Positions 44,058 through 51,858 of a stretch of 64,000 nucleotides of DNA are shown in pieces; the first letter of the stretch is position 1, and each line of letters opens with the position of its first letter. Under the pieces are notes generated by a model. That model saw only the letters and a list, made by a program, of their open reading frames with translations. It searched no databases and was not told the origin of the DNA. The position numbers were made by a program, and so were the translations under genes. The stretch lies in contig NC_003280.10 in assembly GCF_000002985.6 (NCBI RefSeq), positions 8,118,501 to 8,182,500 on the forward strand. The letters are read 5' to 3'. The stretch is from Caenorhabditis elegans. Its lineage: Eukaryota; Nematoda; Chromadorea; Rhabditida; Rhabditidae.

Positions 44058-47000
44058 ATGCTCCCGTTTGATAATGATGACTCTAGCGATGATGCTACAA
44101 CTTCTGTTAGGCCGAAGCATCCAAGGTAATTGAAATTCGGTGAGCAAACGGTAGTCAAATGAAACAATGTTTTTTTCCAGAGGAGTTCCTCAGAGTCAAT
44201 CAACATTTCCACGTGGTAGATCGAATTTTTCGTCTGGAACTTTACCAAATCGAAAAACAGAATGCACTCCAGTGAACACCTTAACAATTGGGCATTCAAA
44301 CAAGATGCTATTGACAACGTTTCGGATGGATCGAAATTCAAAATCTAAATCGGAAGTTGACGTACAAGAACAGCCTGTTCACTCTTCATCGTCGGCTTTT
44401 CCAGGAAATCATTTAAACAATTTTTCGTATCCAGTGAATCGTGGATATCTTCGTGATTACCTGCTACAGTCACAAAGGCCTTCTACTTCAAAACCAGTCG
44501 ACTGTTCTGTTCTAAAACGGCACTCTCTCCCATCAACTCACATTCTTTATGAGAAAACGAAGCACAGAGGTGGTGTAAATATCGAAGAACAAGAAAAACT
44601 CGTGCGGATGTTATGGGCCGCTGCAGAAGAATCGGAAACAGTTGCGAAGACGAGACAGTTTAGTAAAAAACAGGCGATTGAGCTGAATTTCGATGCTAAG
44701 CTCATTGGCAGCATGAATAATGATTGCTTTGGATATTGCCGAGCACACATGGAAAATATAAAAGATGTTTTGAAAACACACTTGAAATTGGTAAGCGATT
44801 TTTTAATTGGCCGTATTTGAAACAATTTAATTTCAGTCTAAAGTTGACGAGGTAAACTGGATCAAGGTGGGGATGGTGCCACGAGCTGCGTACGAAGATA
44901 AATCATACGTCATCGATGCTCATTTAGTTTTGACGCCAAACGGTGAAGTAGAAGATGAAAATGAATTGTTCTCCGAGTTCGCATCAAGTTTCACATCTAG
45001 AATAACTGGAATGCTCCATGATCAAGTATTTTTGGAAGTCCCGAAAATGCATACGCTTTTCACAAAAATAACGTAATAGAATACTCATCCGCTTTTTATA
45101 TACTCAAGTTATAATTTAGACCCCAACACATGGATATAAATATTTCTGCGATTGCGATTGGAAACTGCCCTAATTCAGGACTTTTCCTTGTTAGAGGAGA
45201 TTTCATCAGTCAAGAAAACACAGTTTGTAGTGTGTAAGTTGCACATATTCTACAGAATTTCTAATCAGATTTTTGTTTTTAAGAAAGCTTCAGTCACACC
45301 ATAATGCAGATGCATCCCGTGAAAACAGTTCATTCAAAGTGGCAGGAAGCAATAAATACCTCTCGTATGCGAGATTTGAGCATGACAAAAGACTGGCAGT
45401 GGTATATTTCGGAGTTCGATTAGCCGAATTCGCTGATGATGGTTTGGATCATGCCGGATTTCGTCTTAATCTATATTATAATTTGTTTGTTCGAATTGTT
45501 GTCGACATGTCTCATGAAACTACGAACAGTATTTATATACAAATGAAAAATCCACCGCATCTCTGGGAAGGAATTCCGAAAAATACGATTTTTCACCCAT
45601 CAAAGTCGAAGGTTCTCAATATGGAAACGTGCACAGAATGGGTGATATGGTATGCAAATAACTTTTAAAAACTTGTAAATTTTCAGACAAGAGTATTGAG
45701 TTGGCCTGGCGATGCTGAGGGCCGAGGTGTCGGTTGTACTTCTGAAGCTTTCTCGCAAAGCTCCTGGATCCGGTTGACAATGAGAAAAGATGATGATAAC
45801 GATTCGGTATCGTCTACACAATTGATGGATATTGTTACTAGACTTTCTGCTCGAAGCAAAGCAAAAGTGATGTTCGGCTCCATTTTTTCAATTCGCCGAA
45901 AACTTGCACCATCCCCGGCTTTCCATTCTCTGGGATCTTTCCGAGCGAATTATGCTCTCCAGGCTCTAATCACACGCGGAAGTGTATTTACGGACCAACT
46001 TTTCGACGCAACTGATGAAAATATTCCAAGTTCAGACAATGACAATGATGAAGATGATGACGATGATGTTGATGACACGAAAAAGCCAATGGAATTAGTA
46101 CACGAGCCGCTCTTTCTGAAATTAGTTCGTAGGGGAATGAAAGAATGCTCTCAAGCCACAGAAGAGACTCTCGAACAACTTTTGAATGCATTTGATGAAC
46201 GTCGTCAAATCGATGTAGTTACCGCGTTCACAACAATGTATCAATCAAGAAAGATTCAATACGAAAGACTTCTGAAAGGAGAAAGCCTTCAAGATGTAGG
46301 CCTTGCAAAGCCATTGCCGAAGAATTGTGTTTCAGTGGCTAAAGTTATTGTAACACCATCTCGAATACTGCTAATGGCTCCAGAAGTAATGATGGTAAAT
46401 CGAGTTGTTAGAAGATTTGGACCTGATTATGCTCTTCGTTGTGTGTTCCGAGATGACAATCTGGGCCGGCTCGCTATTCGCGACTTTTCCATCAATAATA
46501 TAGATCGTAAGAAATTCTTTAAATATTTTTAAATATATTATCTAAGTTTCCAGACATGTCGAATATTGTCACCGAAGGAATTTATTTGACTCTCAAAAAT
46601 GGAATTCAAGTTGCTGATCGTGTCTACAGTTTTCTAGGATGGAGTAATTCTCAAATGCGTGATCAAGGATGTTATTTATACGCTCCTCGAGTCAATGCAT
46701 TAACTGGTGAAGTCACAGGAACTGTAGAAGATATTAGAGTATGGATGGGAGATTTCCGAGATGCGATTAGTGTTCCAAAGATGATGAGTCGAATGGGACA
46801 ATGCTTTACACAAGCACAACCAACGGTATATTCTAGTGTTAAAAATATTCATATAGTCGAAAATATTCAGGTACGTCTTGAACGACATCACTGGATCGTT
46901 GAACCTGACATTGAAGGTGGTGTAGAGAACAAATATTGTTTTTCTGATGGTTGTGGTCGAATTTCTATCAAACTGGCAACACATATATCTAAGATTCTCC

Positions 47001-50000
47001 AATTGAAGGAAGTACCAGCTTGTTTCCAAGTGCGATTTAAAGGTTTCAAAGGAATTCTAGTTATTGATCCAACAATCGATGATATTATAAATATGCCTAA
47101 AGTTATCTTCAGGTAGTGATGATCTATCAAACAAATTATATGATCAATTTTCAGAAAAAGTCAGCAAAAGTTTGGTGAAGGTGGTGGAGAGCTGCAAGAT
47201 GAATACCTCGAAGTAGTAAAATACGCTATGCCATCTCCAGTTTGTCTCAACCGTCCATTCATTACAATCCTGGATCAAGTGTCGGAAAAACAATCTGCAA
47301 GCTCTCACAGAAGGATCACAAATCGTGTTCATTATTACTTGGAAAGAGAACTATGTTCTCTGAGTAGTATGTAGTTACTGTATGGTTACAAATCATAATC
47401 TCCTAATTTTAGATATGCTCATAAATGAAAATCAAGCAGCAGAAGAGCTAGTCAATCGCACAAACTTGGCAATCGACTGGAACGCAGCAAGCAAACGAGC
47501 CGGGTTCGAATTGAGTGTAGATCCATTGATACGAGATATGCTATTCTCTATTTATCGCTACAACATCATCCATCACATTTCTAAAGCTAAAATTTTCTTG
47601 CCTCCAAGTTTGGGAAGATCAATGTACGGTGTTGTCGATGAGACTGGACTTTTACAGTACGGACAGGTTTTCATCCAGTATTCACCAAGTATCCGACAAA
47701 CCAGTAACCGTCCAATATTGAAAACAGGCAAAGTTTTGATTACCAAAAATCCGTGTCACGTTCCTGGAGATGTTCGAGTTTTCGACGCAGTTTGGCAACC
47801 AGCATTAGCTCATTTAGTCGATGTTGTAGTATTTCCACAACATGGCCCACGACCACATCCCGATGAAATGGCAGGTTCAGATTTGGATGGAGATGAGTAT
47901 TCTATAATATGGGATCAAGAAATGCTACTCGATTATAATGAAGAAGCAATGGTTTTTCCGAGTAGTTCAGCTGCAGAAGAAGACAAAGAACCTACTACAG
48001 ATGATATGGTTGAATTCTTCCTTCGATACCTTCAACAGGATTCAATTGGAAGAATGAGTCACGCTCATTTGGCTTATGCTGATCTTCACGGACTTTTCCA
48101 GTATGTTCCTTGAAATTATCCATGTTAAGCCAATATCTTATTTTTCAGCGAAAATTGTCACGCCATCGCGCTCAAATGTGCAGTAGCTGTAGATTTTCCG
48201 AAAAGTGGAGTTCCCGCGGAACCATTGTCAAGTTTCGAGCAATGCGAAATGACACCTGATTATATGATGTCAGGTGGAAAACCGATGTACTACAGTACCC
48301 GATTAAATGGACAATTGCACCGAAAAGCTCGAAAAGTTGAAGAAGTTTTGGAAGAATTTGAAACACGCGGGAGTGTATTCGAAAGAGAATATGATAAACT
48401 GATTTGTCCAGAAGACGTTGATGTTTTCTTCGGAAATGAAATAAAACTTGTACAAACATTGACTCTTCGCGATGAATACGTTGATCGAATGCAACAACTT
48501 TTGGATGAATATGGAATTGAAGACGAAGCTTCAGTTGTGTCTGGACATGCTGCAAGTATCAAGAGATTAGCTGGAATGGAGAGAGACGACTATTCATTTT
48601 ATCACACTGATAAGGTCGTTGAGCTTCGTTATGAAAAATTGTATGCTGTATTTCGTGCAAAATTCTTTGAAGAGTTTGGTGGAGAAGAAATCAACATTGA
48701 GAATGATGGAAAGAACACTCGGTTGAAATGTACGAAGGCAATGCATGAAAAGATTCGGCAATGGTATTTCGTGGCATATGTGCAGCCAAAGATAAATAAG
48801 GCTGGAAGATGCATTGGACAGAGTCTTCCCTGGGTTGCTTGGGATGCATTGTGTGATTTGAGGCGACAATTAGTAAGTTAAAATTATGAAATAAATATAT
48901 TAATTTTTTGTTGCAGATGCTCGATAAAAATGACGCAGTTTTACGAGGCAAATATCCAATTGCTGCTCGTTTAGAAGAGGAGATCGAAAACTCCATTGAA
49001 AGGCAGTTTGACAAGTTTCTCAAATTGAAAGATTTGATTGAATCTCACAAAGATGCGCTTTTCCTGAGACGATACGTATATTTTTATGGAGATCAGATTA
49101 TAAAAATGTTGTTCATCCTGAAAGTTTGGCTTGAACGAGAAAATGTGCTCCCATCAAGTGTTTTGTCGATTTGGCAGCTGGGAAGACTTTTGATTCGTCT
49201 AGGGCTCGGAGATCTCCTGGGAAATCCCACTATTGATTATGAAAAAAGTCTTCTGATGCCAACAACAATGTTTCAGCAATGGATTTCGAAGAAAGAAGAT
49301 GCAGATGAAGCTCCGATATTGAGAAATTTCGATATGGGAACAATGATGCTCGAATTTCTCAGATATTTGGCAAGGTAAATTTAAAAATCTAGTGTTGGAA
49401 AAATTTTTCAATATTTCAGTCAATCTTTCGCATCAGCTGAAAGCATAAGTCTTCGAGTTTTCTACGAAAAAGATATTGTTGAGCCAATACTTACTAAAAG
49501 TGCACAATGGATGCCTTTACATCTTGTAAGCTCGATCTTTAATATTCCAGATCTATCAACAAAAAACATATTCCAGATTGCATATCGTACATTTCATTCC
49601 ATCGCTGTGTCTGGACGGTTTGATGCGCTTCATTTGGACGATGAGGATGCGGTGGATCAGATTACAGAAAGCAAGGATCCAATACTAGTTAACGAGTCAT
49701 TGTTCTCTTCGAGAAACTACAACGATGATTATCCGATCAGTAGGAGTAGAATATTGCAATCTTTGAAGGTAAGTGGTTCGAAAATACTTTTCGTTTCTAG
49801 TGAAAAACTTTCAGGATTGGTCTGGTGTCAAAGAAATAATTCCTCGCGAAATCACTGGAACTCGGAAGTCTGATATGATCTATGTTACATCAGTTGGAAC
49901 GGTTCTTGCACGACAACGCCTCGCTCGACTTTTACTTCTCAGTGGAGAGACAATTAGGGACGCGATTGCCAACAACGTCGTGCCGAATGAAGTACGCGAC

Positions 50001-50012
50001 GAGTTCTTGTAA
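44058..50012 (+). CDS. rrf-3: RRF-3, RNA-dependent RNA polymerase (RRF-1/EGO-1 family)
   Basis: RdRP of the ERI complex that makes 26G siRNAs; loss gives enhanced RNAi and temperature-sensitive sterility. Exons: 44058-44125, 44181-44790, 44837-45072, 45120-45233, 45284-45641, 45687-46506, 46554-47112, 47155-47366, 47413-48100, 48149-48872, 48917-49374, 49420-49768, 49815-50012. They give about 1797 aa with phase agreeing throughout. The catalytic DLDGD (in AGSDLDGDEYSIIW) is near residue 1149. Other family words: RVLSWPGDAEGRGVG, SIFSIRRKLAPSPAFHSLGS, FRDDNLGRLAIRDFS, MRDQGCYLYAPRVN, FSDGCGRIS, QVRFKGFKGILVIDP, VLITKNPCHVPGDVRVFDAV and FPQHGPRPHPDEM. An acidic run (DNDNDEDDDDDVDD) is in exon 6. 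The exon 5 donor is GTGATA, chosen because the nearby GTATGC would bring a stop into frame. Confidence 0.96.
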
Positions 50013-50181
50013 TATAGATTTCCACTTATATCATGTTTTATGTTTTGCTTGTTTTATAGAATTTTTAATGATGAGACGAGTATATTTGTATGTGTAATAA
50101 TGTTTTGATCTCGGTTCGATTTTCAGATAAATTTATTGGGTTTTTTTAAATTGGAAAGAAATATTATTTTAAATCACATAT

Positions 50182-51858
50182 TCAAGCATCAACTGCAAAT
50201 GGAGATTTACCACCTCTTGGCTTAGTCATTAGATAGAAAACTGTAAAAGTTCCGAAAACAGCAAGAAAAAGCATAATAGTACAAACAATAACAGAACAAA
50301 GTACAAATGTGATTGACCATTCCTTATTCACTGCATGAGTCCACGAACTTTCCATTTTCGGTTCACTTGTACTACTGCTCACAGTTGGATTCTTGCCAAG
50401 TGTGAACTTACTCCATTTATTCGTGTCGTTTTTTGTAGTTGTTCTAGAAGTTGATGTAGATGGAGTTGTAGTCAGAACAAGAGAAGATGACGTGGATCCA
50501 AAAACTTCCAGAATTCTTTTGTATGATGATTTTGATGAAGTGAAAAATCTAGTTGAAACTGATGTATAGGCATCGAGATCGGAGTTATTAAGGAAAAGTG
50601 CTCGAATTAAACAGCAAGCAACTTTTTGAGGTATTAGGATTTTGATATTATTTTGTGTTGAATCAAATGGTCGTCGAATTATTTGATCGTCCACTTTGAA
50701 AGTTATTGTATCATTTGATGTTCGAATCTGAAATTAATGAACATGGTTACATTTTTAGGTTTAGTCTTAGACTTAGGCGAAGGCTTAGGCTTAGGATTCG
50801 GTTTAGGCCTAGGCACAAGATCTTACTTTAATTCTTAAAATTTTTCGATTATTCTCTCGACACGTTCCCAACATTTTTGGAGATACTGGAACTTGAACAG
50901 CATTGCCAATCGATTGAACATCAATCTTTTTCAATGTTACATCGTAATATGAGAACTCAAATCGTGTTGATTCATTAGGTTCTGTCATGAATAACACGGA
51001 GAATCTGAAGAGAATTAGATGTTTGAATGATAGACAGCTGTTGTCTGGAAATATTTTGAGAGAAAGAAAATCATTTTGTCACTCCCGACTCCCGAGAACA
51101 TGAAACTTTTCCTTCTTATTTTCTGTATTCTGGCTTCACTTGTTTTCACAGAAGTAAGGTTTTGAAGTATAATATAATTTTCCAATTATTTATGATTCAA
51201 ACCTTTTAGATATACCAAAAGAATTGCAGGCTATCCAAACAATGGACCTATGTCGTTCAAATTGCAACACCTACATTGACACTAATTCGAAAAAAACTTG
51301 CATTGAAAGATGTGGTATTGTTAATTAAGTCTAACCTTGTTTCATAAATAATTTCAAAAAATAACCTACTTTTCACACGTGGCAAATAAATGAAAATCAA
51401 TAAGAGCATCTTCATCTTCAGTCCCTTTTACAGGAATATCATGCCATTCATTAACTCGAATCAGCTTCTGAAAACTATGAATATTAGAGATGAAAAATAT
51501 AAAGTTGAAGCTGTGCAAATCTACCAAACTTTTAATGAAGCACATTGTGAACATTTATGATTAGTTGATTAGCTTGAAAAGCATTCAAAATACTAACTAT
51601 GTGCTTTTTCAATTAGATAATCCAGGCATTCCGAAAATTGAATATCTTTGTTACCTAGTCAATTTAAGTCTAGAGATATTAAAAGCGGTAGCCTAAGATT
51701 TACAGAAGCGTGATGAAATAGCCATTTTTAATAAAAATTACCTCCTGTATCACATCAGTCTGAAAATATTCTTTTTTAATTTCAAAATTATTATTATAGT
51801 CCAAAACAAAACTCACCGATAAAACGACATTAAATAATAGTAGAATTAAAATAATCAT
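50182..51858 (-). CDS. type I single-pass membrane protein, nematode, function unknown
   Basis: Not recognised. Five exons, 51858-51817, 51759-51742, 51467-51370, 51004-50827, 50727-50182, phase-consistent, total 293 aa. Residues 1-14 (MIILILLLFNVVLS) are a signal peptide. An extracellular part of about 220 aa follows, with few cysteines and NxS/T sites (NES, NDT, NNS). Next comes a Ser/Thr-rich stalk (TTTPSTSTSRTTTKNDT), then one TM (ITFVLCSVIVCTIMLFLAVF) and a 15-residue cytosolic tail. Exon 2 is only 18 nt. The introns hold a telomere-like repeat (50728-50826) and a complete opposite-strand gene (51005-51369). Convergent with rrf-3. Confidence 0.75.
50754..50815 (+). repeat. degenerate interstitial telomere-like repeat (TTAGGC)
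   Basis: Within one intron the + strand carries about ten diverged units of the nematode telomere hexamer, the clearest stretch being GGCTTAGGCTTAGG, with TTTAGGCCTAGGC close by. It lies on a chromosome arm or centre far from any end. Confidence 0.75.
51100..51328 (+). CDS. 50-aa secreted four-cysteine peptide, nested in an antisense intron
   Basis: Not recognised. Exon 1, 51100-51153, encodes exactly a signal peptide (MKLFLLIFCILASLVFTE) and ends at a GTAAGG donor. Exon 2, 51230-51328, starts after AAGAATTGCAG and encodes AIQTMDLC...GIVN then TAA, in frame. The mature part is about 33 aa with cysteines spaced C-x3-C-x11-C-x3-C, a spacing that can close an alpha-helical hairpin. The intron boundary falls at the signal/mature junction, a common layout for secreted peptide genes. 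The first acceptor in the intron (CCTTTTAG) would destroy the cysteine frame, so the second is chosen. The gene lies wholly inside an intron of the minus-strand membrane protein. Role unknown; antimicrobial or signalling peptide are possibilities. Confidence 0.6.

What the first reader, a model, noticed from the sequence alone, without database searches (positions are those of the whole stretch)
51100..51328. Tiny secreted four-Cys peptide gene nested antisense in an intron
A two-exon gene (signal peptide exon, then a C-x3-C-x11-C-x3-C exon) sits completely inside a 365-bp intron of an opposite-strand membrane protein gene. The splice junction keeps frame and falls at the signal/mature boundary. 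The cysteine spacing suggests a helical-hairpin peptide. Genes this small inside introns are easily missed. Host and guest are both secretory-pathway products, so antisense overlap could regulate either.
Basis: partly seen in the sequence, partly recalled or inferred. Interest (0 to 1): 0.8.

Follow-up and report, generated by a model that had tools for sequence, protein, structure and literature searches.

The report
Nested gene for a helical-hairpin peptide
In a roundworm genome that matches C. elegans, an intron of one gene appears to hold a second, tiny gene on the other strand that would make a secreted peptide folded as two helices stapled by two disulphide bonds, a shape known from plant defence peptides and scorpion and cone-snail venoms; it looks real by sequence but nothing here shows that it is transcribed.

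Summary
The sequence observation holds. The window fits C. elegans chromosome II by size. Exons 51100-51153 and 51230-51328 (+) join in frame into a 50-residue protein with a signal-like start and C-x3-C-x11-C-x3-C, inside a 365-bp intron (51005-51369) of a minus-strand membrane protein gene. Chance is unlikely: a broad search for small two-exon secreted Cys-rich ORFs expects 0.002 per 64 kb and finds only this one in 264 kb. The helical-hairpin guess gains support: the best, sub-threshold, Pfam match is the plant alpha-hairpinin family; this exon is that family's best match in the genome (E 0.39); 0 of 60 Cys-fixed shuffles match it; the AlphaFold2 model is two helices, closest to hairpinin-type structures, all weak matches. 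Weak points: poor donor, a rival acceptor at 51209, borderline codon signal, no paralogue found, no RNA or sister-species data. Opposite-strand nested genes are common in C. elegans (567 pairs in print), so the arrangement is ordinary; antisense regulation is not supported. Most likely: an independent gene for an orphan secreted helical-hairpin peptide, its defence or signalling role only inferred. Whether WormBase already lists it could not be checked.

The parts
51100..51153 (+). guest exon 1: start codon and 18 residues of a signal-peptide-like sequence
   Evidence: open frame from ATG; best 11-residue core has mean hydropathy 3.15 with no charged or N/Q/H residue
51154..51229 (+). guest intron, 76 nt, GTAAGG...TTGCAG, 76% A+T
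   Evidence: keeps frame; donor consensus 6/8, acceptor 5/7; on a 43-intron matrix donor -0.02 bits, acceptor 7.09 bits, 14th percentile
51230..51328 (+). guest exon 2: 32 residues and stop; C-x3-C-x11-C-x3-C; signal cleavage most likely after its first residue (Ala)
   Evidence: best genome-wide match to PF14861; helices at residues 5-12 and 18-27 of the exon 2 peptide; cleavage site inferred from the -3,-1 rule (recalled), not predicted by a tool
51204..51209 (+). rival acceptor TTTTAG, which would shift the downstream frame
   Evidence: 4.36 bits against 7.09 for the acceptor at 51229; product without the four-Cys pattern
51385..51390 (+). possible guest poly(A) signal AATAAA, lying opposite host exon 3 (weaker CATAAA at 51343)
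   Evidence: string match only
51005..51369 (-). host intron 3, 365 bp, that holds the guest
   Evidence: donor 7.93 bits, acceptor 6.37 bits
51817..51858 (-). host exon 1, signal-peptide-like start
   Evidence: gene model; signal-like by eye
51742..51759 (-). host exon 2, 18 nt
51370..51467 (-). host exon 3
50827..51004 (-). host exon 4
50182..50727 (-). host exon 5: Ser/Thr-rich stretch, one hydrophobic segment near the C-terminus, short tail (by eye)
   Evidence: no Pfam family at E<=1 for the 293-residue host protein

Best explanation
A small independent gene lies on the + strand inside an intron of a minus-strand membrane protein gene. Its spliced mRNA encodes a 50-residue precursor; the signal peptide is cut at or near the exon junction and about 31 residues are released into the secretory pathway. 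The two CxxxC motifs sit on two short antiparallel helices and staple them by disulphides (Cys1-Cys4 and Cys2-Cys3, as in alpha-hairpinins). The peptide then acts outside the cell as a small rigid scaffold whose exposed helix faces bind a target, either microbial (defence) or a host receptor or channel (signalling). Shown by computation: open spliced frame, hydrophobic start, Cys spacing, helix-hairpin prediction, profile resemblance, single copy as far as the search sees. Inferred: transcription, splicing, secretion, disulphide pairing, any function. No step needs the antisense arrangement.
Confidence: 0.68

Rival explanations
1. Relic or young unfixed gene: a once or barely expressed secreted-peptide gene that is no longer, or not yet, functional.
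For: Weak donor, borderline codon usage, no paralogue.
Against: No stop, frameshift or lost cysteine in 50 codons; non-Cys residues fit the hairpin profile, which 0 of 60 shuffles do at E<=1.
Confidence: 0.17
2. The exon pair is real but splicing uses the acceptor at 51209, giving a 63-residue signal-plus-helix product without the four-Cys pattern.
For: TTTTAG gives a 56-nt intron, nearer the median of 49 among 43 introns; the frame stays open to 51347.
Against: Lower acceptor score (4.36 against 7.09 bits); its exon 2 product has no Pfam match at E<=1 and folds as one long helix at pLDDT 73; it would leave the Cys pattern, its profile match and the in-frame stop as coincidence.
Confidence: 0.05
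3. Chance: a fortuitous open frame in A+T-rich intron DNA.
For: Motif CxxxC-x(4-20)-CxxxC alone is common (15 occurrences in 264 kb); borderline codon score and a poor donor.
Against: Joint expectation 0.002 per 64 kb under a broad definition, 3 in 534 Mb simulated under the motif definition with laxer splice sites. The null is first-order Markov and the choice of feature was made after seeing it.
Confidence: 0.07
4. An antisense regulatory RNA whose main role is to control the host membrane protein gene, the peptide being incidental.
For: Position; a nested gene can induce its host in C. elegans (ceh-10/polq-1, PMC12274878, part 1 of 6 and passages).
Against: Coding exons lie inside a host intron, so no overlap with spliced host mRNA; the protein-level features would be unexplained.
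Confidence: 0.03

Closest known systems
Plant alpha-hairpinins (Pfam PF14861 Antimicrobial21; Tk-AMP-X2, BWI-2c, VhTI, EcAMP1)
   Same: CxxxC-xn-CxxxC with n within the published 4-20 range (PMC11591084, passages); predicted helix-loop-helix; best profile and structure matches
   Different: Nematode; below the Pfam cut-off; single-module precursor; mature net charge about +1 (counted from the sequence), low for a membrane-active AMP; Ile, not Arg, at the fourth residue after Cys2, where the P1 Arg of VhTI and BWI-2c lies (PMC7191063, passages)
Scorpion kappa-KTx (CS-alpha/alpha) and cone-snail vil14a/flf14 peptides
   Same: Same Cys spacing type, similar size and fold class, as described in PMC7191063 (passages) and PMC11722136 (abstract and introduction)
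   Different: Venom peptides; no direct sequence comparison made here
Hairpin Loop Peptides (HLPs) of fungi and insects (PMC13357843, passages)
   Same: Secreted two-helix hairpin with symmetric disulphides; that paper also reports 17 sequences among nematodes
   Different: Six cysteines and three disulphides, about 85 residues with the signal, highly hydrophobic; the guest has four cysteines and 50 residues. No sequence comparison made here
Opposite-strand nested gene pairs of C. elegans (567 pairs; e.g. ceh-10 in polq-1)
   Same: Whole gene within an intron of a host on the other strand (PMC12274878)
   Different: Guest coding span is only 229 bp in a 365-bp intron
Known nematode antimicrobial peptides (cecropins, caenopores, ABFs, neuropeptide-like, caenacins; PMC6780910, passages)
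   Same: Small secreted peptides
   Different: None of these five nematode groups in the review's Table 2 is described, in the passages I saw, as a four-Cys helical hairpin

Membership tests
Alpha-hairpinin / PF14861 | Cys motif C-x3-C-x(4-20)-C-x3-C | tested here: met
   x11 spacing; motif as given in PMC11591084
Alpha-hairpinin / PF14861 | Profile score over the curated cut-off (27 bits) | tested here: not met
   18.3-20 bits depending on the query
Alpha-hairpinin / PF14861 | Helix-loop-helix fold | tested here: inconclusive
Alpha-hairpinin / PF14861 | Disulphides Cys1-Cys4 and Cys2-Cys3 | not testable with these tools
   pairing inferred from the spacing
Alpha-hairpinin / PF14861 | Antimicrobial or trypsin-inhibiting activity | not testable with these tools
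   no assay; the P1 Arg four after Cys2 of VhTI and BWI-2c is Ile here, from the sequence
Scorpion/cone-snail CS-alpha/alpha peptides | Common descent or channel-blocking activity | not tested
   only fold class and spacing are shared
Hairpin Loop Peptides (HLPs) | Six symmetric cysteines, three disulphides | tested here: not met
   four cysteines in the mature part; definition from PMC13357843
Opposite-strand nested gene | Guest lies within one intron of a host on the other strand | tested here: met
   guest coding span 51100-51328 inside host intron 51005-51369
Opposite-strand nested gene | Both genes transcribed | not testable with these tools
   no RNA data

The most novel reading that the evidence does not exclude
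A nematode has its own endogenous, non-venom, four-Cys CS-alpha/alpha (alpha-hairpinin-type) secreted peptide, a scaffold described in plants and in scorpion and cone-snail venoms, reached independently and carried as a single-copy gene within another gene's intron. A genetically tractable worm would then allow the native role of this scaffold in an animal to be tested.
Probability: 0.45. Interest if true: 0.53.

Novelty: new member of a known kind. Interest (0 to 1): 0.4.

Why it matters
If expressed, it adds a four-Cys helical-hairpin peptide to the nematode secreted repertoire; the nematode groups in the review of worm antimicrobial peptides seen here (passages) are not described as that fold. 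It would also be a compact case of a gene hidden in an intron, and C. elegans genetics could give a native function for this scaffold in an animal. A related six-Cys hairpin family has already been reported with some nematode sequences, which lessens the surprise. If the gene is already annotated or a relic, the interest is small.

Tried and rejected
Paralogues: the exon 2 peptide finds only itself in the genome at E<=10; only one candidate passed the first look, and the search is exon by exon, so distant or split paralogues could be missed. The host protein finds three matches at E<=1, all its own exons. Rfam: no family in the window at gathering score; no tRNA by ARAGORN.

Print: no paper in the held library contains any of three stretches of the peptide. 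The search for alpha-hairpinin found 96 papers, 25 listed; that for nematode or C. elegans with hairpinin, hefutoxin or related terms found 9, 8 listed. No listed title or start of abstract named such a peptide in a nematode; of these I opened PMC11591084, PMC11722136, PMC7191063 and PMC13357843 in part. The cosmid name T05C12 (recalled) gave 14 papers; one, PMC2448379, was opened and held no passage with the term.

A first splice matrix from loosely chosen ORF pairs was contaminated and had wrong host indices; it was replaced, whose matrix rests on only 43 introns chosen by an iterative score from 73 ORF pairs, so percentiles are rough. Shuffle control: 7 other families each matched one of the 61 members of the set at E 0.025-0.081, none of them for the real peptide; HMMER's filters drop most matches above about 0.1, so the shuffles' PF14861 scores below that are unseen. 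AtDEF-like and CoV_E Pfam matches of the 50-residue precursor (E 0.02 and 1.3) include its hydrophobic signal, are below their cut-offs, and do not appear for the mature part alone at E<=1. Saposin A and a mitochondrial ATP synthase subunit also appear among the weak structural rows; not followed.

No positive control on known small secreted genes was run for the ORF scans.

Full report
Where it is. The window's assembly has 100,286,401 bases in 7 contigs, and the window is contig C2 8,118,501-8,182,500 of 15,279,421. These sizes are those of the C. elegans reference and its chromosome II (recalled). An RNA-dependent RNA polymerase exon lies at 46,523-47,116 (Pfam RdRP, E 3e-43), which fits rrf-3 (name recalled).

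Observation. Exon 1 (51100-51153) codes for 18 residues with a strongly hydrophobic core; a GT-AG intron of 76 nt follows; exon 2 (51230-51328) codes for 32 residues and a stop. The joined frame has the pattern C-x3-C-x11-C-x3-C. The most likely signal cleavage is after the first residue of exon 2 (T-E-A; inferred from the -3,-1 rule, recalled). The host on the minus strand is modelled as a five-exon gene for a 293-residue protein with a signal-like start and one C-terminal hydrophobic segment (by eye); the guest's coding span lies wholly within its 365-bp third intron, 51005-51369.

Chance. In 264 kb of real sequence (the window plus 20 regions) the Cys motif with any loop of 4-20 occurs 15 times, 2 with a stop within 30 codons, 1 as a two-exon secreted ORF: this one. 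In 534 Mb of first-order Markov sequence 3 such ORFs reached a hydrophobic core of 2.3 with lax splice sites, and 0 with splice sites as good as the guest's. Because a reader might have picked any Cys-rich pattern, I repeated this with 4, 6 or 8 cysteines at 10% or more: 12 in 348 Mb, or 0.0022 per 64 kb, against one real hit in 264 kb. The stricter splice cut-offs were set at the candidate's own values, and the null keeps only dinucleotides, so the figures are guides. Against the gene: the donor scores below all 43 introns of a small matrix (-0.02 bits, although GTAAG is intact), the acceptor is at the 14th percentile, and the codon log-odds is reached by 3.6% of 4000 open Markov frames.

How it most likely works. 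An independent + strand gene makes a secreted two-helix peptide stapled by two disulphides. Plant peptides of this fold are antifungal, antibacterial, or trypsin inhibitors, and venom peptides of this fold include potassium-channel blockers (PMC7191063, passages; PMC11722136, abstract and introduction). For the guest, the trypsin-inhibitor version is not favoured, since the residue four after Cys2 (P1 Arg in VhTI and BWI-2c) is Ile; a membrane-active version is not favoured by the net charge of about +1. A binding role in defence or signalling remains, and is inference only.

Nesting. C. elegans has 567 opposite-strand nested protein-coding pairs, given as 5% of genes, with less co-expression on average than neighbouring non-nested genes, and a worked case in which a nested gene induces its host (PMC12274878, part 1 of 6 and passages). 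In worm, overlapping genes were about 12-fold fewer than expected and nested ones the preferred type (PMC2330155, passages). So the arrangement is a known kind. The guest's only likely overlap with a host exon on its 3' side is a UTR reaching the AATAAA at 51385, opposite host exon 3; its 5' end is unknown. Antisense control of the host is possible but nothing here supports it.

Novelty. The closest scaffolds are the plant alpha-hairpinins and the venom CS-alpha/alpha peptides. A six-Cys relative in shape, the Hairpin Loop Peptides of fungi and insects, is reported with 17 sequences among nematodes (PMC13357843, passages); the guest has four cysteines and does not meet that definition. I lowered the interest scores slightly after seeing this.

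Limits. I had no other nematode genome, no RNA data and no WormBase annotation. The gene may already be listed there. Statements on print rest.

Noticed in passing
window 50755-50814: About ten degenerate copies of TTAGGC (74% match), the worm telomere hexamer (recalled), inside host intron 4 (50728-50826).
   Followed up: no
window 50182-51858, minus strand: The host protein (293 residues, signal-like start, one C-terminal hydrophobic segment) has no Pfam family at E<=1 and no paralogue seen in its genome at E<=1: an orphan membrane protein.
   Followed up: partly
window 49773-50182: A + strand ORF ending at 50012, which may be the last exon of the RdRP gene, and the minus-strand host gene converge tail to tail, with about 170 bp between stop codons.
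   Followed up: no
window 51468-51741: The host's second-longest intron (274 bp) is also much longer than the median of 49 among 43 introns, and its donor is weak (3.87 bits). The ORF scans covered it and found no Cys-rich guest; nothing else was looked for.
   Followed up: partly
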